From Olivibacter domesticus (GTDB taxonomy: Bacteria; Bacteroidota; Bacteroidia; Sphingobacteriales; Sphingobacteriaceae): a DNA stretch of 64,000 bases. The translations under genes and the position numbers were made by a program. The stretch spans positions 124,001 through 188,000 of the forward strand of contig NZ_FOAF01000001.1 of the NCBI RefSeq assembly GCF_900109575.1. The letters run 5' to 3'. Below are positions 45,026-63,628 of this stretch, piece after piece. The number at the start of each line of letters is the position of its first letter. Within the stretch, counting starts at the first letter, position 1. A model generated the notes under the pieces. The model was given only the letters and a program-made list of their open reading frames with translations. It was not told where the DNA came from and did no database searches.

Positions 45026-45889
45026 ATGACAAAAGAGACCTATCCCCAACCAGGAAAGTTTATTGATCCATTGAGCGACTATGGCTTCCGGCATTATTTC
45101 GGAAGTGAGCCCAACAAAGAAATACTGATTGAATTTCTGAATGATCTTTTTGAAGGCGAAAGGTGTATTGAAGACTTGGAATACGGCCCGACTGAGCATG
45201 ATGGAGATGATACATCGGATAAAAGAGTAATCTTCGATCTGCATTGCCGGGGGAGCAATGGCGAGTACTTCATAATCGAAATGCAACGTATCCGACAAGA
45301 GTATTTTAAAGACAGAGCTCTGTATTACACCTCCCGTTTGATTCAACGTCAATTACCAAAGGGAAAAGCTTTCAATAGCTATCAGCTTCCAGAAGTTTTT
45401 CTGATTGCTCTGCTTGAGTTTCATATGGATGAAGCGCAGAAAAAGCATTATTTCCATGATATAGCCCTTTGCAATAAAAGTACAGGAGAAATTTTTTACA
45501 AAAAACTGGGCTTTAAATTCATAGAGTTACCTAATTTTGTAAAAGAAGAAGAGGAACTGGAAAGTGAAAGGGATAAATGGTTCTATCTGCTCAAACACAT
45601 GAGCAATATGGATAAGGTTCCCAAATTTTTGGATAAGCGCGTCTTTAAGCTTATCTTTAAGATAGGAGAAGTGTCAAAATTGAAAAAGGAGGAACGTATG
45701 GCGTACGAAGCAAGCCTAAAGGCGAAATGGGATACCCAGAATGCTTTTGATACAATTAGAAAAGAAGAACGGGCCAGAGCAGAACGAGAAAAGCTAGACT
45801 CTGCAAAATTATTAAAGCAGTCTGGAGTTGCTAATCATTTAATAGCTGAGAGTTTAAAGCTTCCTTTAGAGGTAGTAGAAAAACTATAA
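45026..45889 (+). CDS. Rpn-family PD-(D/E)XK nuclease/transposase-like protein, copy B
   Basis: This 287-residue protein is very close to the one at 29400. It has the same start (PGKFIDPLSDYGFRHYFGSE), nuclease core (VIFDLHCRGSNGEYFIIEMQ) and internal LYYTSRLIQRQLPKGKAFNS. The C-terminal coiled segment is shorter and different (TIRKEERARAEREKLDSA). The D...ExQ residues are intact in both. Module order (PH-like gene, small membrane gene, Rpn, terminator, family 1 repeat) is the same in both places, so this is a duplicated unit. Confidence 0.85.
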   Translation: MTKETYPQPGKFIDPLSDYGFRHYFGSEPNKEILIEFLNDLFEGERCIEDLEYGPTEHDGDDTSDKRVIFDLHCRGSNGEYFIIEMQRIRQEYFKDRALYYTSRLIQRQLPKGKAFNSYQLPEVFLIALLEFHMDEAQKKHYFHDIALCNKSTGEIFYKKLGFKFIELPNFVKEEEELESERDKWFYLLKHMSNMDKVPKFLDKRVFKLIFKIGEVSKLKKEERMAYEASLKAKWDTQNAFDTIRKEERARAEREKLDSAKLLKQSGVANHLIAESLKLPLEVVEKL

Positions 45890-47204: not shown

Positions 47205-47407
47205 GCACGGAAACAAAATAGCTCGAAGGAACAAGCCTTTAATAAGAAAAAAGGCGACCTAGAAATTTTCGGATAGCAGAGGCTAAGTAAATGCAGAACC
47301 TTTCAAAGAAGATTTTTTATTGTCTTGTTTGTTTTTATAGGCAATAAAGCTTGCTAAAGCAGGTCCAGTCGCGAGCTTTTGTTTCTTTTGGCGGACAAAA
47401 GAAAAAT
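47205..47407. repeat. Dispersed structured repeat, family 2, copy 4
   Basis: GCTCGAAGGAACAA and GCGACCTAGAAATTTTCG flank the stem GCCTTT (47235-47240) and AAAGGC (47250-47255). The copy ends in a TTTCTTTTGG-CGGA-CAAAAGAAA hairpin that stops 10 bp before the ATG of the nuclease gene. The 46995-47204 gap holds nothing recognised. Confidence 0.7.
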
Positions 47408-47416
47408 AAAAAAATT

Positions 47417-48475
47417 ATGGACTTCAAAGATGAAATTCAACAATTTGCCAAACGGGTAGACCGTTTGCTACCGCAGATCAAAACGGAGGAAGCCACTAAG
47501 ACCTCCCTCATTATGCCCTTTCTGCGTATCCTCGGGTATGACGTGTTCGATCCATTCGAGGTACAGCCGGAGTTTATAGCCGATATAGGCATTAAGAAAG
47601 GGGAGAAGGTAGACTACGCCATCCTGAAAGATGAGAAACCCATCATACTCATCGAGTGTAAGCACTATGCCGATGGGCTCGATCCGCACAATTCGCAGTT
47701 GTTCCGTTATTTCCATACCACGGAAGCAAAATTCAGTTTACTCACCAATGGCTTGGAGTATCGCTTTTATACCGACCTGGTATCACCCAATAAGATGGAC
47801 GAGAAACCATTCTTTGAGTTTAAGATTACCGAGATGCGCGATAATGAGATAGCCGAACTCCGTAAATTCCATAAATCCGTTTTTGATCTGGAGAGCATCT
47901 CCAATACCGCAAGCGATCTGAAGTATTTCAATGAAATCAAGATTCTGATCAATGCAGAGATGTATAATCCGAAGGAAGAATTCGTTCGGTATTTTGCGAA
48001 GCAGGTTCATCAATGTATAGTAACGGCAAAAGTGCTCGATCAGTTTACCGCATTAACCAAAAGAGTATTCAGCCAGATCGTGAACGATCAGATCAGCGAA
48101 AGGCTCAAAAGCGCTTTAAAGAAAGAAACAGAATCGGCGGCAGAAACTACGCCAGCTCCGGTAGAAGCAGAATCTTTAGTGATTACCTCGCAGGATGAGA
48201 TCGATGCCTACCTCATTATCAAATCCATTTTGCGCAAAGATGTTGAAGTAGGGCGAATCTATATGCGTGATACGCAATCTTACTGTGGCGTACTGTTGGA
48301 TGATAATAACCGGAAACCGATATGCCGTTTTTACTTTACCGCTAATCGGTTAAGAATCGGATTGTTTGATAGGGATAAGAAAGAAATCAAGCATGATATC
48401 GTGCGTTTGGATGATATTTATAATTTCTCGGAAGATATTGCACTGAGTATCGGATATTATGAGAAGGCGGCTTGA
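47417..48475 (+). CDS. HsdR_N-type PD-(D/E)XK nuclease-like protein
   Basis: I chose ATG 47417 (MDFKDEIQQFAKRVDRLLPQ) because the longer frame upstream is repeat sequence. The protein has 352 residues. A type I restriction enzyme R N-terminal-like nuclease core reads KTSLIMPFLRILGYDVFDP, then EKVDYAILKDEKPIILIECK (D...ExK) and YFHTTEAKFSLLTNGLEYRF. The C-terminal half has a helical region and a small beta-rich domain (VGRIYMRDTQSYCGVLLDD). Helicase and methylase genes are absent, so it is not a full type I system. It stands 75 bp before the nucleotide-centred operon and could be its effector. That link is inferred. Confidence 0.85.
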   Translation: MDFKDEIQQFAKRVDRLLPQIKTEEATKTSLIMPFLRILGYDVFDPFEVQPEFIADIGIKKGEKVDYAILKDEKPIILIECKHYADGLDPHNSQLFRYFHTTEAKFSLLTNGLEYRFYTDLVSPNKMDEKPFFEFKITEMRDNEIAELRKFHKSVFDLESISNTASDLKYFNEIKILINAEMYNPKEEFVRYFAKQVHQCIVTAKVLDQFTALTKRVFSQIVNDQISERLKSALKKETESAAETTPAPVEAESLVITSQDEIDAYLIIKSILRKDVEVGRIYMRDTQSYCGVLLDDNNRKPICRFYFTANRLRIGLFDRDKKEIKHDIVRLDDIYNFSEDIALSIGYYEKAA

Positions 48476-48549: not shown

Positions 48550-48870
48550 ATGTCAGGGAGTTCAAATAATTATAGCCCATCATTTAAGAATACCAAGGAG
48601 GTCTCCTGTGAAGTGTTCTCTTTCAAGACAAAAATAGCCTCACCTAATCCAGATGTACTAGCTAAATGCGTCATCGGAGATGAATTAATACTTGTATTTA
48701 ACGATTCGAATGCTTTCTTACTGTATACAAATGATGAAGAATATGCAGGTGGTATTGTTTCTTCCTATCGGGATAAACTTCTTAGTTGCATTAATGAAGG
48801 TTTCGTGTATAAAGCAACTATCCTAAAAATTGAAGGTGCCAATTGTGAAATTAGAATTTTAGCAAAATGA
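48550..48870 (+). CDS. Small HIRAN-like protein, first gene of the nucleotide-centred operon
   Basis: This 106-residue protein is not firmly assigned. The order of blocks VLAKCVIGDELILVFNDSNA, YTNDEEYAGGIVSSYRDKLL and NEGFVYKATILKIEGANCEI resembles a HIRAN domain (GD.l.L...n...v....g...G.i.......L...i..G....a.i..i). HIRAN domains bind DNA ends and often join nuclease or helicase systems. Its stop codon overlaps the start of the next gene by 4 bp (ATGA), so it is the first member of the coupled operon. Confidence 0.5.
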   Translation: MSGSSNNYSPSFKNTKEVSCEVFSFKTKIASPNPDVLAKCVIGDELILVFNDSNAFLLYTNDEEYAGGIVSSYRDKLLSCINEGFVYKATILKIEGANCEIRILAK

Positions 48871-50084
48871 TAAATGTAGTAGGAAGTGTTTACTATGAAA
48901 AATGTTTCGAACCGTTTGTTGAGGAAATTTATGGATCAGGACTGCGGGCATGTACTGCTATTAATGGTATAGATGTCAAGGTTGATGTTAAGTTGTTCAC
49001 TTTTGGAGATTTAGAGATTAATACATATTTAGAACAGGTCAAGAGCTTTAATGAAAATTTCTCGTATTACATTGAGCCCATAAATAATAGCCTATGTTTT
49101 TACTATGATTATCCTTTGTCAGAGCCTCGGATAAATCCTCGTTTGGATACCCTAAAAATTCCTCAGAAATCCTTATCGATTAATGGGGGAAATGTACTAC
49201 AGTACGGATTTGTTGAAGGTTTAGCTCGGGTTGACGGCAATAAGGTAGTGTATGATCCTCAATCTCCCATAAACCCCAAAAGTTTTAAGGCTAGTGGTTC
49301 TATTGCAAAAGAACTGGCAATAGTTGCAAATTTTTCGGAAGCAAAACATCTAGCTGGGTCAGAGAATTTAAATGAGATAAAACACTATTTTTTTTATAAA
49401 GAACAAGCGGATATTCTAGTCTTAAAATTAGGAGCTAAAGGTGCTTTAGTCTGTCTAAGCGAATCGGATAAAGAAAATGTTGTTCCCGTATATAAGACTG
49501 ACAATGTTTATTCCATTGGTTCTGGAGACGTCTTCTCCGCCTTATTTGCTTACCACTGGTTTAACGGAGCGGCACCTTTGGAATCGGCGAAACTAGCATC
49601 TTTTGCTACAGCTGAGTATTGTAATAGTGGTCAATATAGTTTTAGTCGATGTATAGATAGAACAAGGTTTAGTCCACTTATAATTAAAAAGGATTTTCCG
49701 AAAAAAATCTATTTAGCCGGTCCATTCTTTACAATGTCGGAACGGTGGTTAGTTCAACAGATAAAAATGTCACTTGAGGATTTTGGATTGGAAGTTTTTT
49801 CTCCCTGGCATGATGTCGGTTATGGCCCTTCCACTGATGTGGTTTCAAAGGATTTGGAGGCTATTATTAATTGTAATCTTGTTTTTGCTTTAGTCGATGG
49901 ACTTGACTCCGGGACTATGTTTGAGATTGGTTATGCTTCCAGCTTAAACAAACCAATAATATGTTTCGTGCAAAATGAGAGACTAGAAGATTTAACTATG
50001 CTGACTGGGTCAAACTGTTTATTGGTAAATGATATAACGACAGCTATTTATAAAGCATATTGGAAACTTGCAGAAAATGAGTAA
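48867..50084 (+). CDS. PfkB-type kinase fused to nucleoside 2-deoxyribosyltransferase
   Basis: This 405-residue two-domain protein starts with a PfkB/ribokinase-like part (residues 1-270), with IGSGDVFSALFAYHWF at 217-232. It carries the GxGD anion hole and base (D221). Then comes a nucleoside 2-deoxyribosyltransferase domain (280-405): IYLAGPFFTMSERWL, FSPWHDVGYGP, DLEAIINCNLVFALVD and DSGTMFEIGYA, with the probable nucleophile Glu353. The first domain would phosphorylate a sugar or nucleoside, and the second swaps bases on deoxyribose. The fusion suggests that the two steps act on the same nucleotide. It overlaps the next gene by 8 bp. Confidence 0.85.
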   Translation: MINVVGSVYYEKCFEPFVEEIYGSGLRACTAINGIDVKVDVKLFTFGDLEINTYLEQVKSFNENFSYYIEPINNSLCFYYDYPLSEPRINPRLDTLKIPQKSLSINGGNVLQYGFVEGLARVDGNKVVYDPQSPINPKSFKASGSIAKELAIVANFSEAKHLAGSENLNEIKHYFFYKEQADILVLKLGAKGALVCLSESDKENVVPVYKTDNVYSIGSGDVFSALFAYHWFNGAAPLESAKLASFATAEYCNSGQYSFSRCIDRTRFSPLIIKKDFPKKIYLAGPFFTMSERWLVQQIKMSLEDFGLEVFSPWHDVGYGPSTDVVSKDLEAIINCNLVFALVDGLDSGTMFEIGYASSLNKPIICFVQNERLEDLTMLTGSNCLLVNDITTAIYKAYWKLAENE

Positions 50085-50670
50085 AGGCTTATTACTTTCG
50101 GGTGGATTAGATTCCATTTCATTGGCTTACATGGTTAGACCAGAGATAGCTTTCACTGTTGATTATGGGCAAAAACCAGCTCAAACTGAAATAAAGATTT
50201 CAGAAAATATCTGTAAGATACTTAAAATAAGGCACGAAGTTATTGTAGTAGATTGCTCTTCTCTGGGTAGTGGAGATTTAACGAATAATCCGTCATTAAA
50301 TACTTCGCCTTCATCTGAATGGTGGCCTTACCGCAATCAGCTTTTGGTTACTTTAGTTGCTATGCGAGCAATAAGTTTAAATGTTAGAGAATTATTGGTG
50401 GGATCCGTTAGATCGGACAATTTTCATAAGGATGGAACAATTCCGTTCTATCAAAAATTAGATTCTTTGATGCAGTATCAGGAAGGAAATATGAAGATTT
50501 TATACCCCGTCATAGATCTGTATACTCATGAACTTATAATTACTTCTGGGATTCCATTGGACATGATATTAATGGCACATTCCTGTCACACAAGTAATGA
50601 GCCATGTGGCTTTTGCCGAGGTTGCTTAAAATACTTAACCGTAAAACAGAAACTAAATATTGAAAATTGA
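50077..50670 (+). CDS. QueC-like 7-cyano-7-deazaguanine synthase homologue
   Basis: I chose ATG 50077 (MSKGLLLSGGLDSISLAYMV). The SGGLDS P-loop (PP-loop ATPase, residues 8-13) is intact. The C-terminal zinc site has four Cys in HSCHTSNEPCGFCRGC. GSVRSDNFHKDG and ILYPVIDLYTHEL fit QueC regions. At 197 residues it is slightly shorter than housekeeping QueC (about 220-230). QueC makes preQ0 through an adenylated intermediate. Homologues serve in defence systems (QatC in QatABCD, Cap9 in type IV CBASS). No queD, queE or queF genes are nearby, so it is likely specialised for this operon. Confidence 0.85.
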   Translation: MSKGLLLSGGLDSISLAYMVRPEIAFTVDYGQKPAQTEIKISENICKILKIRHEVIVVDCSSLGSGDLTNNPSLNTSPSSEWWPYRNQLLVTLVAMRAISLNVRELLVGSVRSDNFHKDGTIPFYQKLDSLMQYQEGNMKILYPVIDLYTHELIITSGIPLDMILMAHSCHTSNEPCGFCRGCLKYLTVKQKLNIEN

Positions 50671-50673
50671 ACA

Positions 50674-52053
50674 ATGATGAAAAATCAAATTTGGAAAAAA
50701 TTACTTAATCCAGCAAGATTAAGAACATCAGATAGGCAAAAGGAAAATGACCCGAGAAACGAGTTTGAAAGCGATTTTGGAAGAATAATTTTCAGCCCTG
50801 CCATTCGACGTATGCACGATAAAACCCAAGTGTTTCCGTTAACGGCTGATGATAATATTCATTCAAGGCTAACACATTCTTTGGAAGTAATGGCCATTGG
50901 CTATACTTTTGGTTTGAAGATTTGTGAAAATGCTGATTTTGTAAAGAGTACCGGTTATGATAAAAGCGAGTTGGAACGAATAATTTGCATTTTGCTGAAA
51001 AACTCGTGTTTAATCCATGATATAGGCAATCCTCCATTTGGTCATTTCGGAGAAGAGGTTATAAAAAATTATTTTAAAGAATACTTTTATAGCGCTAGTA
51101 ATACAAAAAACCTAAGTATAGACAAGGAACGACAAGAGGATTTTATTCTGTTTGATGGTAATGCTCAAGGATTCAGAATTTTGACGAAACTACAAGTACT
51201 GAATGATCCTTTCGGATTAAATTTAACGTACGGAACATTAGCTTCATTCTTAAAATATCCAAATTATGGTAATATTGAAGAGAAAATTCTATCAAAAAGT
51301 AAAAGAGGAGTTTTTCAATCTGAAGCTGAATACTTAAAAACAATATTTGTTGACTGCGGACTCCTTGTAGGAGAAGATTATATTCGGCATCCTTTAGCAT
51401 TTTTGATGGAGGCTGCGGATTCGATATGTTATTTGATAATGGATATTGAAGATGGGCTCAATAAAGGATGGTACGACTATGATGTTTTAGAGAGACAATT
51501 GAGTGTGCATTCTCAACTAAAAAATATATTCGATAGACTTAATGTTAAATACAGTAGTCCCACGGATATAATAAAAAAAATTGTTCAGTTCAGAATAGAT
51601 GTGATTGCTTTAATGGTTAAGGACGCGACAGATTTATTTTTAGCGAAAATAGATAATATATTAGAAGGAAAATATAATAGCGAACTTCTATTTGAAAGAC
51701 CTGATGCACCAGCACACACTTTAAAAAAATTTTGCAGCGAATTTATTATTTCGAATAGAGAAATTGTTTCGTTGGAAATAACTGGCCACTCAGTATTAAC
51801 TGGGTTATTGGATTATTATATTAAATTTGTGTTTCACGAAAATAAAAAATATCGAAAACGTGCCTTATCATTGATCTCGAAGAGTATTATAAGCGCGGTT
51901 CTATATGAAACGAATACGTTTGGAGAAGAAGGTGCTTTCGAAAGTTTAAGTGACTATAACAAACTGCAGGTTATCGTAGACTTTATAACGGGGATGACAG
52001 ATCAATTTGCTCTAGATCATTATCAAAAAATTAGTGGCCAAAAAATTATCTGA
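50674..52053 (+). CDS. HD-domain dNTP triphosphohydrolase-like protein
   Basis: This 459-residue protein matches the dGTPase/SAMHD1-like HD family. It begins RTSDRQKENDPRNEFESDFG and RIIFSPAIRRMHDKTQVFP, with HSRLTHSLEV (first His), CLIHDIGNPPFGHFGE (HD) and, later, the Asp in HPLAFLMEAADSICYLIMD. Such enzymes split dNTPs to nucleosides and triphosphate, and depletion of dNTPs is a known antiviral strategy. It starts 4 bp after the QueC-like gene and ends 20 bp inside the next gene. Confidence 0.85.
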   Translation: MMKNQIWKKLLNPARLRTSDRQKENDPRNEFESDFGRIIFSPAIRRMHDKTQVFPLTADDNIHSRLTHSLEVMAIGYTFGLKICENADFVKSTGYDKSELERIICILLKNSCLIHDIGNPPFGHFGEEVIKNYFKEYFYSASNTKNLSIDKERQEDFILFDGNAQGFRILTKLQVLNDPFGLNLTYGTLASFLKYPNYGNIEEKILSKSKRGVFQSEAEYLKTIFVDCGLLVGEDYIRHPLAFLMEAADSICYLIMDIEDGLNKGWYDYDVLERQLSVHSQLKNIFDRLNVKYSSPTDIIKKIVQFRIDVIALMVKDATDLFLAKIDNILEGKYNSELLFERPDAPAHTLKKFCSEFIISNREIVSLEITGHSVLTGLLDYYIKFVFHENKKYRKRALSLISKSIISAVLYETNTFGEEGAFESLSDYNKLQVIVDFITGMTDQFALDHYQKISGQKII

Positions 52054-52771
52054 CATAGAAAAAGAAGTTGTTGATTCGACAGAGAGTTTTATCCGTTATT
52101 TGGATAAAGCTGTCGATAAAGATACTATGTCAATTCTTCATGCTATAAATCAAGAAACAGATCTTTTAATTTTCAGTGGAATAATTAGAAATTTTTTCTT
52201 AGGTATTTCTACTAATAGAGATTTAGATATCACTCTCGAGAAAAAAATCGATGTAATCAAGTATTTTCGAGGATGGGAAATTAAATATAACAGTTATGGG
52301 GGCTACAAATTATTTAATGGTTCACTTGATATTGATCTTTGGTTTATTGAGGATTCTTGGGCATTTAATCACTATCAAAAACAACTTGGATTTCAACTTG
52401 ACAGGAAAATACCAGATACCGTTTTTTTTAATTTTTCTGCGGTAGCATTTTCTTTTCGCCAGAAAAAATTCTATTTTACAAAACATTTCGTAAGATTTTT
52501 GAGGGATAAGAAAATCGATATAGTAAGTAAAGATAATGCAAATAATATGTTATGTGTTGTCAACACATTATATTATTCCGATAAATACAAGTTGAAGATA
52601 TCTGAAAATCTTTTTGAGTATATAAGAGATCTATTTAAAGATTATCCTGGTAGCTATGATGACGTTCAGAAGAAACACTTTGGAAAAGTTTTATATTCAA
52701 AGTACGATATCAAAATAAGGTTAGAAAAACCGAAATTTAAAATTGTTAAAACAAGAGCTAAAAAGTTCTAA
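52034..52771 (+). CDS. Pol-beta-fold nucleotidyltransferase
   Basis: This 245-residue protein starts at a GTG within the end of the previous gene. The nucleotidyltransferase core reads LLIFSGIIRNFFLGISTNRD, then LDI (a G[GS]..RN..L....DLD pattern as in poly(A) polymerase head domains). A third carboxylate lies in SLDIDLWF about 45 residues later. The C-terminal half is Lys-rich and helical. It could add nucleotides to RNA, protein or a small molecule. It is too small and different to call a CBASS cyclase. It is the last gene of the coupled set. Confidence 0.7.
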   Translation: MAKKLSDIEKEVVDSTESFIRYLDKAVDKDTMSILHAINQETDLLIFSGIIRNFFLGISTNRDLDITLEKKIDVIKYFRGWEIKYNSYGGYKLFNGSLDIDLWFIEDSWAFNHYQKQLGFQLDRKIPDTVFFNFSAVAFSFRQKKFYFTKHFVRFLRDKKIDIVSKDNANNMLCVVNTLYYSDKYKLKISENLFEYIRDLFKDYPGSYDDVQKKHFGKVLYSKYDIKIRLEKPKFKIVKTRAKKF

Positions 52772-52795: not shown

Positions 52796-53485
52796 TCATA
52801 AGTATGGTTCAAACATTAAAGATGTTCTGTTGATATCAAGTTTATACATGTTAAGACAGTTGCACCTAGGAATACAAATGCGCCGTTCAATAGGAATTTT
52901 TAATTCACTTTCTGACATACTTATCTTTAATGCTCCAACAGCCATGCTGTAAAAATCGACCCCAGTATTGTCTTGAATTTGTGGGTCATCAACTATTATC
53001 TTTGATATATAATTTTTTAGAGGTAATTCACCTCCGCAGTGTCGAAGAACTAACATTTGATCAAATCTTCCTACGAAAAAATTTTCTTCTAAATCTTGCT
53101 TGTTTTGGAACCACCGGTGTTTTTCTGATTTATTAGCCCACTTTGTTGGATTTAATTTAGTAACCCAAATTCGGCCAGTATTGTTTCGATCAAGTATCTT
53201 TACATCAATTACAAATGTAACAGGTCCATAAGCGTTGATTTTACTAGCCCGTCTATGTATGTCGACAGCATCTAGAAATATGTCATACCATACACTATAG
53301 CGTTTATCGACGTCGTCAGAAGTTTGTGGCGTTTGCTTTAATCCATTACGCTCAGTGTTTCCCCGAGACATTAAAGATCGATATTTCAGAAACATACTTG
53401 CTGTTGCTACACTATTTGCATGGAAGAGGTACTCTACTCCCTTTTGTACGAGTATTTCATAGACGTGTTTTGACGGGATATGCAT
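52796..53485 (-). CDS. DarT/ART-like protein
   Basis: This 229-residue protein is convergent with the nucleotide operon. The N-terminal half, VEYLFHANSVATASMFLKYR then SLMSRGNTERNGLKQTPQTS, is like the H.a....s...fl....L.SR...e..g pattern of DarT-type ADP-ribosyltransferases. IFLDAVDIHRRASKINAYGP and VTFVID follow. The catalytic Glu could not be placed with certainty. No antitoxin (DarG macrodomain) gene is adjacent. The family assignment is tentative. Confidence 0.45.
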   Translation of the reverse strand: MHIPSKHVYEILVQKGVEYLFHANSVATASMFLKYRSLMSRGNTERNGLKQTPQTSDDVDKRYSVWYDIFLDAVDIHRRASKINAYGPVTFVIDVKILDRNNTGRIWVTKLNPTKWANKSEKHRWFQNKQDLEENFFVGRFDQMLVLRHCGGELPLKNYISKIIVDDPQIQDNTGVDFYSMAVGALKISMSESELKIPIERRICIPRCNCLNMYKLDINRTSLMFEPYL

Positions 53486-54001: not shown

Positions 54002-54592
54002 CTAATTTGCAAGGCATTTCAATTGAACGGACAATTCATATTTTGCAGTATATTGAAGCTCAAAATCGTACCAATCTTTAGCATCTTGCATTACGTCGAT
54101 CGCTTCCTGTATATATTGTTCAAGTAAAAGCAACCCCTCATCGTTCAGGAATTGGAAAAGCTTATACTTTCTTACATATCCACTAACCAATGGGTTATCT
54201 TTGGCCAATAAAATTGGCAATACATCTTTTTTGAAACGAGCATAAATATATTTCTTGATATAGGTTGCAACTACTGGTGGCTTAATAAAGTCATTCGGAT
54301 TAAGGTGATTCCAGCCGGAGAGTTTATACATCAATTTGAAAAATGGCTTGCTATTTGGAAACATAGGTGAGTACTCTCTGGCCATATCACTTATAATATC
54401 TTTAACTTCCTTTATTGTAAATTGACGACCGTTTTGCAGCTGATGTATTTCCTCTTCTACGTTATCAGGCCGATGAGAAATTAAAGCTTCAGTATTAAAT
54501 AATAACAGACTTTGCTCGTCCTTATCACGGACTTTCTTAAGCTCTTTATCTGGAGCTTCCTGATTTTGCAATGATTTTGATTGTTTTGCCAT
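54002..54592 (-). CDS. P63C-domain-like protein
   Basis: This 196-residue protein has a C-terminal region very like P63C domains: NPNDFIKPPVVATYIKKYIY, ARFKKDVLPILLAKDNP, YVRKYKLFQFLNDEGLLLLE and AIDVMQDAKDWYDFEL. These follow the usual KP..vg.yTn..vY.rl.pgvL..L...NP...R...hQ.L....G...L..hi...i.lM..s..w..F. P63C is known from phage and plasmid replication-linked proteins. The first 45 residues are charged and low complexity. The gene starts 1 bp after the XRE-ImmA/IrrE gene, so the two are coupled. Confidence 0.7.
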   Translation of the reverse strand: MAKQSKSLQNQEAPDKELKKVRDKDEQSLLLFNTEALISHRPDNVEEEIHQLQNGRQFTIKEVKDIISDMAREYSPMFPNSKPFFKLMYKLSGWNHLNPNDFIKPPVVATYIKKYIYARFKKDVLPILLAKDNPLVSGYVRKYKLFQFLNDEGLLLLEQYIQEAIDVMQDAKDWYDFELQYTAKYELSVQLKCLAN

Positions 54593-54593
54593 A

Positions 54594-55811
54594 TTAAATT
54601 GAATATATATCTACATTTCTGTTTTTTGAAATCTGTTTTACTGGGATAAAATCTAAAAATTCGCTTGCCTTAAAACGTTCCAATAAGTTGTCAAAATTTG
54701 GCATATACCTATCGTATTTTCCATAGGTGTTAGATTCTTCATTATCCCAATTGAAAAAGGTATAAATTATGCTTGGATGGACATGATTCTGTTCAGCAAA
54801 TTGCTTTACATATTTGGGTTCATTAATATGCGCCCTTATAATATTCATTTTCTCATCTGAAAACAAATATTGACGCGCAAAATTATTAGCTTCACTTTCG
54901 TTGATATTCATCGAATCTGTTTCTCCCGTGATGTGGTATTTCTCGGTTTTTATTTCCTCCCAATCATATAAAACATGAAAAAGTTCATGAATCAGGGCGA
55001 ACCACATCGTCGCGTAGAATTTTGTGTACTTTGTTAAAATGATACACGGCTTATCCCTATAAGCCAGAGTTGCACCACGTAAATGCAAATCTGTGGTGAA
55101 TTTAGGGACAAAAATTAAGGTAATTCCTAGTTTAAATAGTGCTTGGGCAACTAAAAGCAATCCTTTTTCAACATTTAAAGAATGCCATCTGATTTGAGGA
55201 AAGTAGTCAATTAACCCGTCTCTGTCATATTCATAAGGATTTGGTGTTCTTTCTAAACTCTGACAAGCAGCCGCATACCAGAATGTTAGATTCTCTTTAT
55301 TTGTTGTTCTTTTTCCACTACTAAAGGCGGCGGTTATCCTATGCTTTCCATGATCGAAAATACTATTATAGCCAAAAAATGAGTTTATTCGCCGTTCGAT
55401 ATCATCGAAATCATTGATACTATCAATAAACCCTATCTTTTTTAAACTGGGAAGGTTAAAATTGTTAATGATGAAGCTCCTTCTTTTAGCCAATGAAATG
55501 GTCTCATTATGAGTCTCATTGACAAGCTGAAAATATTTGTTGACAATTTCTTCATGAGATATTTCTAAAAAATCTGATAGTTTAAGAATCGTTACGAAGT
55601 CTACTTTTTTTGCTTCTCCAGTTAGAATTGCGTTAAGTGTTTTATGATCAATACCTAATATCTTTAGGGATTGATGCTTTGTTATATCCAAATAAGTAAG
55701 TCTCTGTTCAAATAATTCTTGCAGAGGATAGTAGTTCACCGTCGAATCTTCATTGAAAATTTTTTTCAGTAATGCGTCGATATCCTTATGTCTATTGTTT
55801 TTGTCCATCAA
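54594..55811 (-). CDS. XRE-ImmA/IrrE metallopeptidase-type regulator
   Basis: This 405-residue protein has an N-terminal helix-turn-helix (about residues 35-75, KHQSLKILGIDHKTLNAILT and GEAKKVDFVTILKLSDFLEI). A C-terminal ImmA/IrrE domain has HELFHVLYDWEE (HExxH, about 282) and the downstream Glu in NINESEANNFARQYLF. Such proteins cleave repressors to derepress mobile elements or stress genes. It is coupled to the P63C-like gene downstream by 1 bp, and both are transcribed away from the DarT-like gene's neighbourhood. Confidence 0.85.
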   Translation of the reverse strand: MMDKNNRHKDIDALLKKIFNEDSTVNYYPLQELFEQRLTYLDITKHQSLKILGIDHKTLNAILTGEAKKVDFVTILKLSDFLEISHEEIVNKYFQLVNETHNETISLAKRRSFIINNFNLPSLKKIGFIDSINDFDDIERRINSFFGYNSIFDHGKHRITAAFSSGKRTTNKENLTFWYAAACQSLERTPNPYEYDRDGLIDYFPQIRWHSLNVEKGLLLVAQALFKLGITLIFVPKFTTDLHLRGATLAYRDKPCIILTKYTKFYATMWFALIHELFHVLYDWEEIKTEKYHITGETDSMNINESEANNFARQYLFSDEKMNIIRAHINEPKYVKQFAEQNHVHPSIIYTFFNWDNEESNTYGKYDRYMPNFDNLLERFKASEFLDFIPVKQISKNRNVDIYSI

Positions 55812-56217: not shown

Positions 56218-56727
56218 TTATATTATTTCTTTATACACAAATTTATCTGCTTCATTTTTTCGTCTCGCTATTTTATCTTGATTCCTACTCATAGCTAAAG
56301 AAATATAAGCACTGCTAAATTCCCAATTCCTGGCTCTGAATAGTTCTCTGATTTTTTTTACGGTTAGCCCTTTATTAATAAATTCTTCATTGGATAGTAA
56401 TTCAAAATTGATGGCGTATGTAATAGACGGACGATCTTCGAGAATTTTACTATATTCTATATTACCTTTATGCGTTACAATGAGCTTATCTCTAAAAAGA
56501 CGATCGATTTCAAGCTCCGTCTTATTTATGCTTGCCAGTGATTTCCGAAAGAAATTGCATGCCCTATTAATGTTGTCGATACTGAAATCAGCCTCGCCTT
56601 TTTTTATTCTTTTAAGTTGCTTATCAGATATTTCTAAAAGATTTGCAAAGCTTACATCAGTGACTCCCGAATAGTCTATAAGTTTGAAGATGTTTTTACG
56701 TATCAGGTCTTTGTTTAGATTAGCCAT
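56218..56727 (-). CDS. Helix-turn-helix DNA-binding protein
   Basis: This 169-residue protein has an XRE-like HTH at about residues 9-55 (NIFKLIDYSGVTDVSFANLL, then EISDKQLKRIKKGEADFSID). The C-terminal 90 residues are helical and of unknown family. It may regulate the adjacent ImmA/IrrE gene, which lies 400 bp downstream on the same strand. I see no toxin partner next to it. Confidence 0.7.
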   Translation of the reverse strand: MANLNKDLIRKNIFKLIDYSGVTDVSFANLLEISDKQLKRIKKGEADFSIDNINRACNFFRKSLASINKTELEIDRLFRDKLIVTHKGNIEYSKILEDRPSITYAINFELLSNEEFINKGLTVKKIRELFRARNWEFSSAYISLAMSRNQDKIARRKNEADKFVYKEII

Positions 56728-58754: not shown

Positions 58755-61700
58755 ATGAACGATTCTTTTAAAAGGCGCTGGAGAGATTCACGACGGATTC
58801 GACAAATGTTCGACTATGTCACGTTACTTTTTCGCGGTTCCCTTATACAAAATTTTCTGGTCTATTTTTCGGTGTTTTTAGCCAGAACGCTTAGCCCTGC
58901 CTTGAGCCTACCTAAGCCCTGTCTAAGCCCTACTTTAGCACTAGGAAAAAAACGTAGGCTTATTGGTCCGTTTTTCGGTTTTCTAATAAGTTTTCACATG
59001 ATCTTGTTCTGTGTTTGTTTGGCCCACGCCCGGCAGCAGGGATTAGGCACCCCTGTTGCCACCGGCGTGGCTTTTCAGAGCAGTTATGCTGTTACAGGTA
59101 AAGTAATGTCGGTGGCTGATCGTAAGCCGTTAGAAGGGGCCACCATTAGTGTACAAGGCAAGCAAACAAAAGTACTCACAAATGCCGACGGAGCCTTCCG
59201 CATTGTCACAAGCGATACGAGCGGTGTTTTATTGGTCAGTTTTGTAGGTTACCAAACTGCCGAAATCAATTTTAATAGGAGAGAGGCCGGGCCATTTACC
59301 ATCCACCTTGAAAGCAACGGCACTCAACTTGACGAGGTGCAGGTAAGTACAGGTTATCAGACTTTGCCGAAAGAAAGGGCAACGGGGAGTTTTGCCCAAC
59401 CGGTAAAGGAGCTGTATGATGGTAGAATAGCAACGGATGTGATTACGAAGCTGGAAGGGATAACACCTGGTTTGACGTTCAATCGGAATACCACTTTAGC
59501 CAACAGCGGCCAGCTTGATATCAATATCCGCGGAAGAAGTACCATACATGCTGATGATCAACCATTGATAGTGGTTGATAATTTTCCATACAGCGGTGAT
59601 ATCAATAATCTTAACCCGAATGATATTGAGAATATTACAATACTTAAAGATGCGGCAGCGGCATCCATTTGGGGTGTAAGGGCGGGGAATGGTGTGATTG
59701 TTATTACCACTAAAAGAGGCTCATTTAGCCAGCGATTGAAAGTTAATGCAAACGCTAACGTAACCGTGGGCGAAAAACCGAACCTATTCTACAATCCTTA
59801 TTTTTTAGGCTCGTCAGCTTACATTGATATTGAAGAAATGCTCTTTAATTTAGGTGCTTTTGATGGTGATATAGATAATAAGATAACTTACCCCATTCTG
59901 TCGCCTGTAATAGAAATGCTGGCAAAAAAACGGGTAAGTGAGGTTGGTAACGAAGATGTGGAGAGACAAATTGCTTATTTAGGCAACCAAGATATACGGA
60001 CTGATGTTCAACGCTATTTGCTTCGTCCGTCTGTAAGGCAGCAGTATTCATTTTCACTTAACGGGGGAGGCGAAAAAACTACTCACTTGTTTTCTGCCGG
60101 ATATGACAACAATAGCAGCTCGTTGATAGCCAACAGTGATAAGCGGATTACGCTTAGTTCGCAGAATAATTTTCGTCTCTCCAAAAATCTCACCTTTGAT
60201 GTTGGGCTGAACTATGCGCAGCAAATGCGGCAAATGGATGGTACTTACAACTATGTCACAGCGACCGATTTTCCTTACCAAAAATTGATGGATGAATCAG
60301 GGAACCTACTTTCAGTATTACGGGGTAGCAGTCGTTCTTTTATAGATCAGGCACCGTCAATCGGTTTTTTGGATTGGAGTTATACACCACTCCATGATCT
60401 TGGTATGGGAAAGGATCGGTCGACTGGTACTGATATCCGTGTATTGACTGGTTTAAAATACAGCTTACTCAAAGGCTTGAGTGTAGATGTAAAGTATCAG
60501 TACCAGAACTATCGTTTTCAAAAACGAAATTTCCAGAGCGAGGATACCTATTACACAAGAAATATCATCAATAGATATGCGACGCTAGAAGACGATATGG
60601 TGAGGAAGTTCAATGTGCCTTTAGGTGGTATTTTGAACACATCGTTTGATAACCAGATCGCACATAATGTGAGGGGGCAGCTTAATTACGATCTACAATT
60701 AAACCGTCATCAATTATTTGTAGTGGCGGGCTTAGAGTTTAATGAGGTTTTGAATGAGGCTACCAACGCCGCGCTTTATGGTTATGATGACGAACTGGCT
60801 ACATTTAAACCGGTTGATAATATTACCACTTTTCCTTTGAATCCCGGAGGCAATTCGAGTGCAATGATCCCCTCTAGTGTGGGCATTGCTGCTAGTGCGG
60901 CTCGCATCCGTTCTATTTACGGTAATGCCGCCTATACGTACAACGATCGTTACACGTTTTCAATTAGTGCGCGAGCGGATGGCTCTAATTATTTTGGGGT
61001 TAATGCTAATCAAAAGACGGTGCCACTATGGTCGGTAGGTGGAAAATGGGATTTGGATAAAGAAACTTTTTATCGGAGCAGCTTTTTGCCTTATCTAAAG
61101 TTACGCTTAACATATGGTTCTAATGGAAATTTAGATAGAAGTATTACGGGTGTTACGACTTTTAGATATCTCAGTAATGCTGTTTGGACGGGCCATCGTT
61201 ATGCTGATATCTCTAATTACGGTAACCCCGATTTGGGATGGGAAAAGACAGCGATAACAAATTTGGGTATTGACTTTTCATTGAAGAATCATATTCTTTC
61301 TGGAAGTATCGAGTACTTTATCAAAAAGGGAACGGATCTGTTGGGAGATAGGCTTTTCCCTAATAGCGTCGGTTTACGATCATTGAGAGGGAATTATGCA
61401 GCAAGCCAGGGGAGTGGCTTTGATATCGTGCTCACCAGTAAAAACTTAACAGGCAGATTTGTTTGGTCCAGCCAGCTGCTTTTAAGTCGGGCTACTGATA
61501 GGGTTACGCGGTACGATGTGCAGCTTCCTGCTACCTCTAGCATGGTGGCATCGGGTACTACATTGACATATGTTATAGGTAAACCTGTTTATAGTATTTT
61601 TAGCTATAAATGGGCTGGTTTAGACCCCGATTCTGGCGATCCACAGGGTTATGATCAGGCAGGGGGAATCAGCAAAGACTACGCTTCGCTCATTAATCCC

Positions 61701-62246
61701 AACCTCTCCGATTTGGTGTACCACGGCTCTGCTAGACCAACTGTTTTCGGCGGTATCAGTAATACTTTTTCTTATAGCAGATTTTCGCTCTTCGTAAACA
61801 TAGCGTACAAGTTTGGCTATTATTTCCGAAGGCCAACGGTCTCTTATAGCATTTCTCCAACAACCGTTTCGATCAGTGCTTTAGCAAATGCGGATTTTCT
61901 GAACCGCTGGCAAAATCCAGGGGACGAACTTAATACAGATGTCCCCTCATTTAGTTATCCCTTTGAAAATGATCGAAATAGTTTTTATAGTAGATCTGAA
62001 GTAACAGTAGAAAAAGGAGATCATATAAGGTTGCAAGACATTAATTTAAGTTATGCACTAAATCCAGCATTTGCTAGCTGGATGGCTATGCAGGAATGCC
62101 GCTTCTTTGTCTACATTAATAACATCGGCCTTTTATGGAAAGCGAATAAAGTGGACTTAGATCCAGATGCAGTGCCTGCTTCTGCCGATTATACAAGGGT
62201 ACCTACTCCGCGCTCTATTGCTTTCGGTATTAAATTGACTCTTTAA
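58755..62246 (+). CDS. SusC/RagA-type TonB-dependent outer-membrane transporter
   Basis: The frame has 1163 codons. The true start is uncertain: a signal-like segment (ISFHMILFCVCLAHARQQ) ends near residue 95, and the first 70 residues are unusual (Arg/Leu/Pro-rich), so translation may start later. After it come a CarboxypepD_reg-like domain (YAVTGKVMSVADRKPLEGAT), the plug (LDEVQVSTGYQTLPKERATG and ITILKDAAAASIWGVRAGNG) and a barrel ending IAFGIKLTL. The TonB box is weak. It pairs with the SusD gene 2 bp downstream, so it imports a glycan or peptide. Confidence 0.9.
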   Translation: MNDSFKRRWRDSRRIRQMFDYVTLLFRGSLIQNFLVYFSVFLARTLSPALSLPKPCLSPTLALGKKRRLIGPFFGFLISFHMILFCVCLAHARQQGLGTPVATGVAFQSSYAVTGKVMSVADRKPLEGATISVQGKQTKVLTNADGAFRIVTSDTSGVLLVSFVGYQTAEINFNRREAGPFTIHLESNGTQLDEVQVSTGYQTLPKERATGSFAQPVKELYDGRIATDVITKLEGITPGLTFNRNTTLANSGQLDINIRGRSTIHADDQPLIVVDNFPYSGDINNLNPNDIENITILKDAAAASIWGVRAGNGVIVITTKRGSFSQRLKVNANANVTVGEKPNLFYNPYFLGSSAYIDIEEMLFNLGAFDGDIDNKITYPILSPVIEMLAKKRVSEVGNEDVERQIAYLGNQDIRTDVQRYLLRPSVRQQYSFSLNGGGEKTTHLFSAGYDNNSSSLIANSDKRITLSSQNNFRLSKNLTFDVGLNYAQQMRQMDGTYNYVTATDFPYQKLMDESGNLLSVLRGSSRSFIDQAPSIGFLDWSYTPLHDLGMGKDRSTGTDIRVLTGLKYSLLKGLSVDVKYQYQNYRFQKRNFQSEDTYYTRNIINRYATLEDDMVRKFNVPLGGILNTSFDNQIAHNVRGQLNYDLQLNRHQLFVVAGLEFNEVLNEATNAALYGYDDELATFKPVDNITTFPLNPGGNSSAMIPSSVGIAASAARIRSIYGNAAYTYNDRYTFSISARADGSNYFGVNANQKTVPLWSVGGKWDLDKETFYRSSFLPYLKLRLTYGSNGNLDRSITGVTTFRYLSNAVWTGHRYADISNYGNPDLGWEKTAITNLGIDFSLKNHILSGSIEYFIKKGTDLLGDRLFPNSVGLRSLRGNYAASQGSGFDIVLTSKNLTGRFVWSSQLLLSRATDRVTRYDVQLPATSSMVASGTTLTYVIGKPVYSIFSYKWAGLDPDSGDPQGYDQAGGISKDYASLINPNLSDLVYHGSARPTVFGGISNTFSYSRFSLFVNIAYKFGYYFRRPTVSYSISPTTVSISALANADFLNRWQNPGDELNTDVPSFSYPFENDRNSFYSRSEVTVEKGDHIRLQDINLSYALNPAFASWMAMQECRFFVYINNIGLLWKANKVDLDPDAVPASADYTRVPTPRSIAFGIKLTL

Positions 62247-62248
62247 CA

Positions 62249-63628
62249 ATGTATCAAAACTCAATACATATGATCTATAGAAATATACTTCTGCTACCAA
62301 TGATAGTCTTGCTATTTACTCAGTTGGCCTGTAAAGACGAATGGCTTGATAAAAAGCCAAATAAATCGTTAGTAGTACCAAAACGGGTGGAAGATTTTCA
62401 AGCATTGTTGGACAACGTAGAATACATGAATCAGAACCATACAGGTGCTTTAAGTGAAATAGGTACGGATAATTTGATTTTACCACTGGCTGCCTGGCAA
62501 ACACGTTTACCTGAGGAAAGAAACGCTTACATATGGGGTCCTACTGAGACTTTTTACGAGGGAACCCAAAATGCAGAATGGTTTTATGGTTACGAGCGTA
62601 TTCAACGGGTCAACATCGTGATTGATGGTTTGAAAGATATCAATGAAAATACTGCTGGTTGGCAGAACGCTATGGGGAGTGCCTTGTTTTTTCGCGCATT
62701 TGACCTTTATAACCTTGCTCAACTATTCTGCAAGCCTTGGCTAAATAGCGATAATGCGTCTTTAGGGCTTGTACTTAGGCAATCATCTAATATCAATGAA
62801 GCGGTTAAAAGGTCTACATTGGCGGAAACCTATGGCATGATCATCAATGATCTAGAAGAAGCTATCACTTTATTGCCTGATCTTCCTGAAATAAAAACGC
62901 GGCCGTCAAAAGCCGCTGTCTATGCGCTACTTGCCAGAATTTATTTGTCAATGGAAGATTATGAGCAAAGTCTATTATATGCAGATAGCTCGCTGAACAT
63001 CTTCAATGAGGTACTGGATTTCAATGGACTGAATCTATCTGGCAATAACCCGGTAAGCAGACTGAATAGTGAAGTAATTCTTCATTGTCGCTTAGTTAAT
63101 TATGGTGCTTTACAGTTCAATAGAATGCTTGTTGATACCAATTTATATAGTATGTACGAGGATAATGATCTTCGCAAGCTGGCTTATTTTAGAACGGTAA
63201 GTGGGGGTTTTGCTTTTAAAGGAAGCTTTGATGGCTCGGGGATTAATTTCTGTGGTTTTACAACTGGGGAATTACTGTTGATCAAGGCGGAATGTGCGGC
63301 TCGTTTGGAAGATTCTCAACAAGCTTTAATAAGTCTTAAAGTACTCCTGGATAAACGATATCTTACCGGTACTTCACCTTCCTTGACGGAATTGGAAACA
63401 GAAGGCCTGCTGCTCAAAATATTAAATGAAAGACGGAAAGAGCTTTGCTTTCGTGGTTTGCGATGGGCTGACCTTAGAAGACTCAATAGGGATAGTCACT
63501 TTGCAAAAATAATCACTAGGTATTTAGGGGCAGATACTTATGACTTGTTACCTAATGATATACGTTATATACTTCCGATTGATGATAATGAAATACTCCT
63601 CACCAGCATTCAACAAAATATAAGATAA
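62249..63628 (+). CDS. SusD/RagB-type surface-binding lipoprotein
   Basis: This 459-residue protein has a lipoprotein signal (LLPMIVLLFTQLACKDEW, Cys at about 28). The SusD fold shows in the MGSALFFRAFDLYNLAQLFC helix block, TPR-like repeats and the C-terminal LLKILNERRKELCFRGLRWA and DLRRLNR. It follows the SusC gene by 2 bp and precedes a secreted-protein gene by 1 bp, the usual SusC-SusD-effector order. Confidence 0.9.
   Translation: MYQNSIHMIYRNILLLPMIVLLFTQLACKDEWLDKKPNKSLVVPKRVEDFQALLDNVEYMNQNHTGALSEIGTDNLILPLAAWQTRLPEERNAYIWGPTETFYEGTQNAEWFYGYERIQRVNIVIDGLKDINENTAGWQNAMGSALFFRAFDLYNLAQLFCKPWLNSDNASLGLVLRQSSNINEAVKRSTLAETYGMIINDLEEAITLLPDLPEIKTRPSKAAVYALLARIYLSMEDYEQSLLYADSSLNIFNEVLDFNGLNLSGNNPVSRLNSEVILHCRLVNYGALQFNRMLVDTNLYSMYEDNDLRKLAYFRTVSGGFAFKGSFDGSGINFCGFTTGELLLIKAECAARLEDSQQALISLKVLLDKRYLTGTSPSLTELETEGLLLKILNERRKELCFRGLRWADLRRLNRDSHFAKIITRYLGADTYDLLPNDIRYILPIDDNEILLTSIQQNIR

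What the first reader, a model, noticed from the sequence alone, without database searches (positions are those of the whole stretch)
48550..52771. Five-gene nucleotide-centred operon with QueC, PfkB-deoxyribosyltransferase fusion, dNTPase and nucleotidyltransferase
Sequence: five consecutive plus-strand genes are joined by overlaps or tiny gaps (4-bp overlap, 8-bp overlap, 3 bp, 20-bp overlap), so they are made together. Knowledge: QueC-like proteins occur in QatABCD and type IV CBASS, dNTPases deplete dNTPs against phages, and deoxyribosyltransferases occur in conflict systems. Inference: the set could make or destroy a modified deoxynucleotide, or attach a deazaguanine-like group, as a defence. 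I do not know this exact combination as a named system.
Basis: partly seen in the sequence, partly recalled or inferred. Interest (0 to 1): 0.88.

Follow-up and report, generated by a model that had tools for sequence, protein, structure and literature searches.

The report
Tagged-protein QueC immune operon
Five overlapping genes form one version of a widespread, mobile, probably anti-phage system in which a QueC-type enzyme is predicted to attach a modified guanine-like base to the glycine/serine-tagged tip of a small protein with a DNA-end-binding fold; published work filed the enzyme pair under purine salvage.

Summary
The operon is real; coordinates and overlaps are as stated. The key gene is the unlabelled first one: ORF1 is a disordered tail starting MSGSS plus a HIRAN-fold domain. 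Homologues carry an M[S/T/G]G tag in nearly all of about 100 loci, against about 2% of flanking genes. ORF3 is the published 'Cluster 4' QueC, assigned there to purine salvage; its best solved match is Cap9, the type IV CBASS enzyme that conjugates 7-deazaguanine to a client's N-terminal glycine. ORF1 + PfkB-NDT + QueC is a mobile core in bacteria and haloarchaea, paired with interchangeable modules: azoline-oxidase-like enzyme + OGG glycosylase, dGTPase + CCA-type nucleotidyltransferase (this window), PARIS AriA/AriB, Mrr, or TIR proteins. In a TIR variant the glycine tag sits on the TIR protein beside QueC, with a CBASS-type TGT. Flanks are defence-rich compared with queD flanks of the same genomes. 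I infer a third QueC-based protein-nucleobase-conjugation immune system, after type IV CBASS and Qat. ORF1 residue 2 covaries with QueC residue 67 and the azoline oxidase, suggesting heterocyclisation, but not significantly after phylogenetic correction. Defence and conjugation are inferred, not shown.

The parts
48550..48870 (+). ORF1, 106 aa: predicted client protein; disordered Gly/Ser tail starting MSGSS plus HIRAN-fold domain (residues about 21-106)
   Evidence: Tag alignment; AlphaFold tail pLDDT 57-65, domain about 95; 3k2y Z 12.3, HLTF HIRAN Z 9.5, HamB C-terminus Z 8.8
48867..50084 (+). ORF2, 405 aa: PfkB-type kinase fused to nucleoside deoxyribosyltransferase; NxxE (N155, E158), GSGD (D221) and the NDT Glu (E353) are conserved
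   Evidence: Pfam; alignments; PDB profile hits to NDTs and ribokinases
50077..50670 (+). ORF3, 197 aa from ATG: QueC family, Cap9-like / 'Cluster 4'; SGGxDS, PxRN, HxDG and Cys4 Zn site intact
   Evidence: Pfam, PADLOC QueC 1.4e-14, best PDB hit Cap9 9nto 2.7e-15, conservation
50674..52053 (+). ORF4, 459 aa: dGTP triphosphohydrolase, putative effector
   Evidence: TIGR01353 320 bits, PRK01096 379 bits, PADLOC dGTPase 1e-64
52034..52771 (+). ORF5, 245 aa (GTG start): CCA-adding-type nucleotidyltransferase, putative effector
   Evidence: AlphaFold pLDDT 80; Foldseek 3h39 2e-7; invariant R62, D63, D65, D101 in four homologues

Best explanation
This is one variant of a mobile anti-phage system built on protein-nucleobase conjugation. 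The Cap9-like QueC (ORF3) uses ATP to activate a 7-deazaguanine carboxylic acid, most likely CDG, and joins it to the N-terminus of ORF1 exposed after Met removal. ORF1 is a Gly/Ser-tailed protein with a HIRAN (DNA-end-binding) fold. PfkB-NDT (ORF2) acts on the same base, either placing it on a deoxyribose and phosphorylating it or otherwise processing it. On sensing phage DNA ends, modified ORF1 arms or directs interchangeable effectors: in this window a dGTPase (dNTP depletion; its product deoxyguanosine could also be the NDT sugar donor) and a CCA-type nucleotidyltransferase. Directly observed: gene order, family membership, the tag, fold matches, conserved catalytic residues. Inferred: the conjugation, its substrate, ORF2's role, DNA sensing, and defence itself.
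For: Three-gene core conserved across bacteria and haloarchaea. ORF3 is closest among solved structures to Cap9, sharing YGQ(x)5E and GSG[D/E]L, and keeps the Asp aligned with Cap9 D117. Cap9 and probably QatC modify clients tipped MGGS / MGTS (PMC13279940; PMC11996544); ORF1 has such a tip plus a disordered tail. When ORF1 is absent (L199-L202), the gene after QueC is a TIR protein starting MGGGGGG/MGGGSS, beside a CBASS-type TGT. ORF1 residue 2 covaries with QueC residue 67 and with the azoline oxidase. The host makes CDG (FolE, QueD, QueE) but has no canonical QueC. Defence context.
Against: No experiment. Most bacterial tags expose Ser, not Gly as in Cap9/QatB clients. The Tyr that stacks on the base in Cap9 is His here. 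Two host drafts lack QueD and a clear QueE. In one clade QueC is replaced by a PurA-like enzyme, and three of its members have lost the tag. Covariation is not significant after phylogenetic correction. ORF2's role and the effector roles rest on family knowledge only.
Confidence: 0.6

Rival explanations
1. Purine or deazapurine salvage: PfkB-NDT and QueC recycle nucleobases and nucleosides for the cell, the published reading of QueC Cluster 4.
For: Both enzymes are base/nucleoside enzymes with intact catalytic residues; PMC13329287 proposes it; a queuosine-precursor transporter gene sits beside the operon on two plasmids.
Against: Patchy (7 of 395 Bacteroidota), plasmid- and element-borne, next to Gabija, PARIS, TIR and restriction genes; does not explain ORF1, its tag, or why the tag moves to a TIR protein.
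Confidence: 0.12
2. DNA-modification system: QueC, NDT and PfkB make a modified deoxynucleotide for host or phage DNA; glycosylase, Dam or Mrr partners police it; ORF1 is a DNA-end-binding accessory.
For: Ogg-HhH glycosylase in 79 loci, Dam in 31, Mrr in 8; NDT + kinase + dGTPase would fit a deoxynucleotide route.
Against: No kinase for the di/triphosphate step, no DNA-inserting enzyme; the window has no glycosylase, methylase or Mrr in the operon; does not explain the N-terminal tag or the Cap9 kinship.
Confidence: 0.13
3. Genes 4-5 are a separate dGTPase/nucleotidyltransferase defence that merely sits beside genes 1-3.
For: In L024 the pair lies on the opposite strand about 5.6 kb from ORF2; L020 and L006 have the dGTPase without the nucleotidyltransferase.
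Against: Coupled junctions in the window; the pair directly follows the core in L048 and L058, once with PurA and once with QueC-F4.
Confidence: 0.1

Closest known systems
Type IV CBASS (Cap9 QueC, Cap10 TGT, OGG, MGGS-tagged CD-NTase)
   Same: Cap9-like QueC beside a tagged client; OGG-type glycosylase in most relatives; CBASS-type TGT in the TIR variant.
   Different: No CD-NTase; the client is a HIRAN or TIR protein; PfkB-NDT added; this window has neither OGG nor TGT.
qatABCD
   Same: QueC-family enzyme plus a client with a disordered tail and a conserved tip (MGTS).
   Different: No QatA or QatD; QueC is about 200 aa, not about 400; client fold is HIRAN, QatB is helical.
QueC Cluster 4 (PMC13329287)
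   Same: This is that protein family: same Cys motif, length and PfkB-NDT neighbour.
   Different: That paper proposes purine salvage and does not mention ORF1, the tag, or the defence modules.
SagB/McbC/BmdC-type azoline oxidases
   Same: The gene after QueC in about 70 relatives matches them (CyaGox 2e-20, BmdC 2e-14), KY motif included.
   Different: No YcaO cyclodehydratase among the recurrent neighbours; the gene is absent from this window.
PARIS (AriA/AriB)
   Same: AriA and AriB-family genes occupy the effector position in L029, L034 and L053.
   Different: Not in this window.

Membership tests
QueC Cluster 4 (PMC13329287) | CH(x)5CxxCxGCxK motif, SGGxDS, about 10 residues shorter than QueC | tested here: met
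   CHTSNEPCGFCRGCLK, SGGLDS, 197 aa; the YGQ motif is YGQ(x)5E where the paper writes (x)6
QueC Cluster 4 (PMC13329287) | PfkB-NDT (PF00294-PF05014) in the operon | tested here: met
   ORF2; 95 of 102 loci
Canonical QueC | YxQxHxxE, YPDC, queD/queE linkage | tested here: not met
   No His in YGQ(x)5E, HxDG in place of YPDC; queD and queE lie elsewhere in the genome
Type IV CBASS | CD-NTase with MGGS tip | tested here: not met
   No CD-NTase in the operon; ORF5 is CCA-type
Type IV CBASS | Cap9-like QueC | tested here: met
   Best PDB hit 9nto; PADLOC QueC 1.4e-14
Type IV CBASS | Cap10 TGT and OGG in the operon | tested here: not met
   Absent in the window; present in relatives
qatABCD | QatA NTPase, QatD TatD nuclease, about 400-aa QatC | tested here: not met
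   None in the operon
Protein-nucleobase conjugation system | Client N-terminus carries the base | not testable with these tools
   Needs mass spectrometry
HIRAN fold (ORF1) | HIRAN domain | tested here: met
   By structure only: Z 12.3 (3k2y), 9.5 (HLTF); no Pfam HIRAN hit by sequence
NCBIfam antiphage_dGTPase NF041026 | Score above the model's cut-off (400) | tested here: not met
   173 bits; over the cut-off of the general dGTPase subfamily TIGR01353
Anti-phage defence system | Restricts phage | not testable with these tools
   Genomic context only

The most novel reading that the evidence does not exclude
The family makes a previously unknown post-translational modification. In Ser/Thr-tagged systems the QueC-activated deazaguanine amide cyclises with the Ser2/Thr2 hydroxyl to an oxazoline, and the azoline-oxidase-like gene oxidises it to an oxazole. 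PfkB-NDT then builds a deoxynucleotide on it, giving a protein-nucleotide conjugate carried by a DNA-end-binding protein. In the window variant, which lacks the oxidase, the product would stop at the amide or oxazoline.
Probability: 0.22. Interest if true: 0.95.

Novelty: new variant of a known kind. Interest (0 to 1): 0.82.

Why it matters
Protein-nucleobase conjugation is established only for type IV CBASS and proposed for Qat. A third, wider system with a different client fold would make it a general immune strategy. It also re-reads a QueC family recently published as purine salvage and names the missing acceptor protein. It gives single-residue tests (ORF1 residue 2, QueC D67) that can be run in E. 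coli, where a natural six-gene version exists.

Tried and rejected
A scan of genome contigs with the single protein found nothing; the alignment query worked. No full-length relative in phage genome records. CDG dependence by host gene content is mixed: 43 of 47 hosts have a PTPS/QueD-family hit, but two lack both QueD and a clear QueE, so it was not used as proof. Sampling 321 genomes of the Vibrio host's class for more Gly2 cases found one extra locus. The azoline-oxidase/residue-2 link is strong uncorrected (71:0 against 10:10, p=3e-8) but has too few independent contrasts. Sequence searches of the PDB with ORF1 and ORF5 gave nothing convincing; fold searches did. 'ORF5 is the CD-NTase of a CBASS' was rejected. 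'PfkB-NDT simply replaces the Cap10 TGT' was rejected, because the TIR variant has both. The precursor-transporter link is not general: only two closely similar plasmid loci. 'Housekeeping queuosine set' was rejected. A QueF search I ran on another genome's neighbours was not informative.
Full report
OBSERVATION. The five overlapping ORFs exist exactly as described. Family searches confirm PfkB + NDT, QueC and dGTPase. ORF5 has no sequence match, but its AlphaFold model (mean pLDDT 80, four sequences) matches CCA-adding enzymes.

CONSERVED CORE. ORF2 as query finds full-length relatives on 37 plasmid records; a profile of it finds them in 7 of 395 Bacteroidota genomes, in at least 356 places in genome contigs (80 kept) and in seven viral contigs. 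In 95 of 102 analysed ORF2 loci a QueC of about 200 aa lies directly downstream. Practically all have an ORF1 relative upstream, mostly 100-160 aa. Hosts span Proteobacteria, Bacteroidota, Verrucomicrobiota, Myxococcota, Cyanobacteria and haloarchaea.

MODULES. Around this core the other genes change. A nitroreductase-fold protein (F4) follows QueC in about 70 loci. An Ogg-HhH DNA glycosylase is in 79, Dam methylase in 31, dGTPase in 15, Mrr nuclease in 8, and dGTPase + CCA-type nucleotidyltransferase in 4 including the window. Three loci carry AriA/AriB-family genes of PARIS. In one Bacteroidota clade QueC is replaced by an adenylosuccinate-synthetase-like enzyme (PF00709); its Pedobacter member keeps the window's dGTPase and nucleotidyltransferase.

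THE TAG. ORF1 begins MSGSS. In QueC-bearing loci the start is MSGS, MSGG, MGGS, MGGG, MTGS or similar. Only 18 of 966 flanking ORFs start M[SGTC]G. Starts of ORF1 were chosen with the motif in view, but only 16 of 966 flanking ORFs pass a similarly free choice. AlphaFold gives a disordered tail (1-20) and a confident domain. That domain matches the HIRAN fold: 3k2y Z 12.3, HLTF HIRAN bound to DNA Z 9.2-9.3, and the C-terminal domain of Hachiman HamB Z 8.8. HLTF HIRAN binds 3' DNA ends (general knowledge); whether ORF1 does is untested.

THE QUEC. ORF3 fits QueC Cluster 4 of PMC13329287, which that paper links to PfkB-NDT and purine salvage. Its profile hits Cap9 first (9nto, 2.7e-15), then canonical QueC (5e-15, 8e-12), so the margin in E-value is small. 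With Cap9, and unlike QueC, it shares YGQ(x)5E without the His and a GSG[D/E]L motif. It keeps the Asp that in Cap9 reads the deazaguanine Watson-Crick edge, while the stacking Tyr aligns with His. Cap9 conjugates CDG to the N-terminal glycine of its CD-NTase, and QatB has an essential MGTS tip (PMC13279940; PMC11996544). A tagged ORF1 beside a Cap9-like QueC is therefore read as client and enzyme.

THE TIR VARIANT. On Agrobacterium, Neorhizobium and Rhizobium plasmids (L199-L202) no ORF1 relative is found. The gene directly after QueC is a ThsB-type TIR protein that starts MGGGGGG or MGGGSS, and another protein fuses TIR to a TGT domain. By PADLOC models that TGT (8.5e-23) and QueC (4.2e-29), and the small glycosylase of L195 (OGG, 1.4e-33), match models that I recall as the type IV CBASS ancillary set. 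The tag thus follows QueC, not the fold of the tagged protein. PfkB-NDT is present here too, so it does not simply replace the TGT.

COVARIATION. F4 matches azoline oxidases (CyaGox, SagB-type, BmdC, McbC) with their KY motif. In 71 of 71 F4-bearing loci ORF1 residue 2 is Ser or Thr; Gly2 occurs only without F4 (10 of 20). Five further F4 loci also have Ser2. QueC residue 67 (the D of GSGD) is Asp in 76 of 81 Ser/Thr systems and 1 of 10 Gly systems. It was the most discriminating column of the alignment, picked after the fact. On the tree the changes go the same way in 2-3 independent pairs and almost never the other way, which is too few for significance. This suggests, without proving, that QueC touches residue 2 and that an oxazole forms when F4 is present.

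SUBSTRATE. The window's genome encodes FolE-QueD and QueE (so CDG) but no canonical QueC; the only other PF06508 hit reads as an argininosuccinate-synthase-like protein. Two plasmids place a queuosine-precursor transporter gene (VUT) beside the operon. Two host drafts lack QueD and a clear QueE, so CDG is likely but not certain.

DEFENCE CONTEXT. 120 proteins flanking the system (core removed) match 251 PADLOC families, including type I restriction, capP, AriA, RmrA and PtuA; some AriA hits are the system's own PARIS modules. 120 proteins flanking queD in the same 20 genomes match 7, mostly generic. Several models can match one protein, so this compares breadth, not gene counts. Ten of 5,426 E. 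coli genomes carry a six-gene version. The three examined lie on an integrase element between ssb and yjcB with a dGTPase, and one of them also carries Gabija GajA/GajB.

MECHANISM. Best reading: QueC conjugates a deazaguanine to ORF1, PfkB-NDT elaborates or processes the base, and ORF1 couples phage DNA ends to effectors, here dGTPase and nucleotidyltransferase. My confidence is about 0.8 for a defence role, 0.7 for N-terminal modification of ORF1 by QueC, and about 0.4 for the roles given to PfkB-NDT and the effectors.

NOVELTY. The QueC/PfkB-NDT pair is published. I found no paper in the held library that describes ORF1, the tag, the azoline-oxidase-like partner or the effector modules; most subscription papers and preprints are not held. 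I rate it a new variant of a known kind, with a possible new chemistry.

Noticed in passing
52796-53485 (-): 229-aa protein convergent with the operon, no Pfam hit, weak PADLOC PDC-S01 match (0.009); sits where many relatives have the OGG glycosylase but is unrelated to it.
   Followed up: no
54002-55811 (-): P63C-domain gene and a 405-aa IrrE-peptidase-like gene matching PADLOC PD-Lambda-2_B (6e-23) and RmrA; with the HTH gene at 56218-56727 this may be a second defence locus.
   Followed up: no
47351-48475 (+): HSDR_N-type protein (PF04313, 9e-17) without type I restriction partners, ending 74 bp before ORF1.
   Followed up: no
L048, L050, L074, L077, L085: An adenylosuccinate-synthetase-like enzyme replaces QueC (one clade); tags are MKGK, MSKR, MSKR or Gly-rich. 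Another ATP/GTP-type base enzyme may do an analogous job.
   Followed up: partly
L050, L074, L077, L085 (about 300-600 bp upstream of ORF2): A conserved 64-85 aa gene ('LTDEQVLKEFVRRFECDG...') precedes ORF1 only in the PurA-type clade.
   Followed up: no
G000 (L187, L188): The window's genome has FolE, QueD and QueE but no canonical QueC, so CDG would be a dead end without ORF3.
   Followed up: partly
L005, L198: Multi-ubiquitin / ThiF / DUF6527 gene sets lie directly beside the system on unrelated plasmids.
   Followed up: no
L104: A viral contig carries two ORF1 + PfkB-NDT pairs in tandem around one QueC.
   Followed up: no
45026-45889: PDDEXK_2 transposase-family gene upstream, and SusC/SusD genes at 58755-63628 downstream, frame the region.
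   Followed up: no
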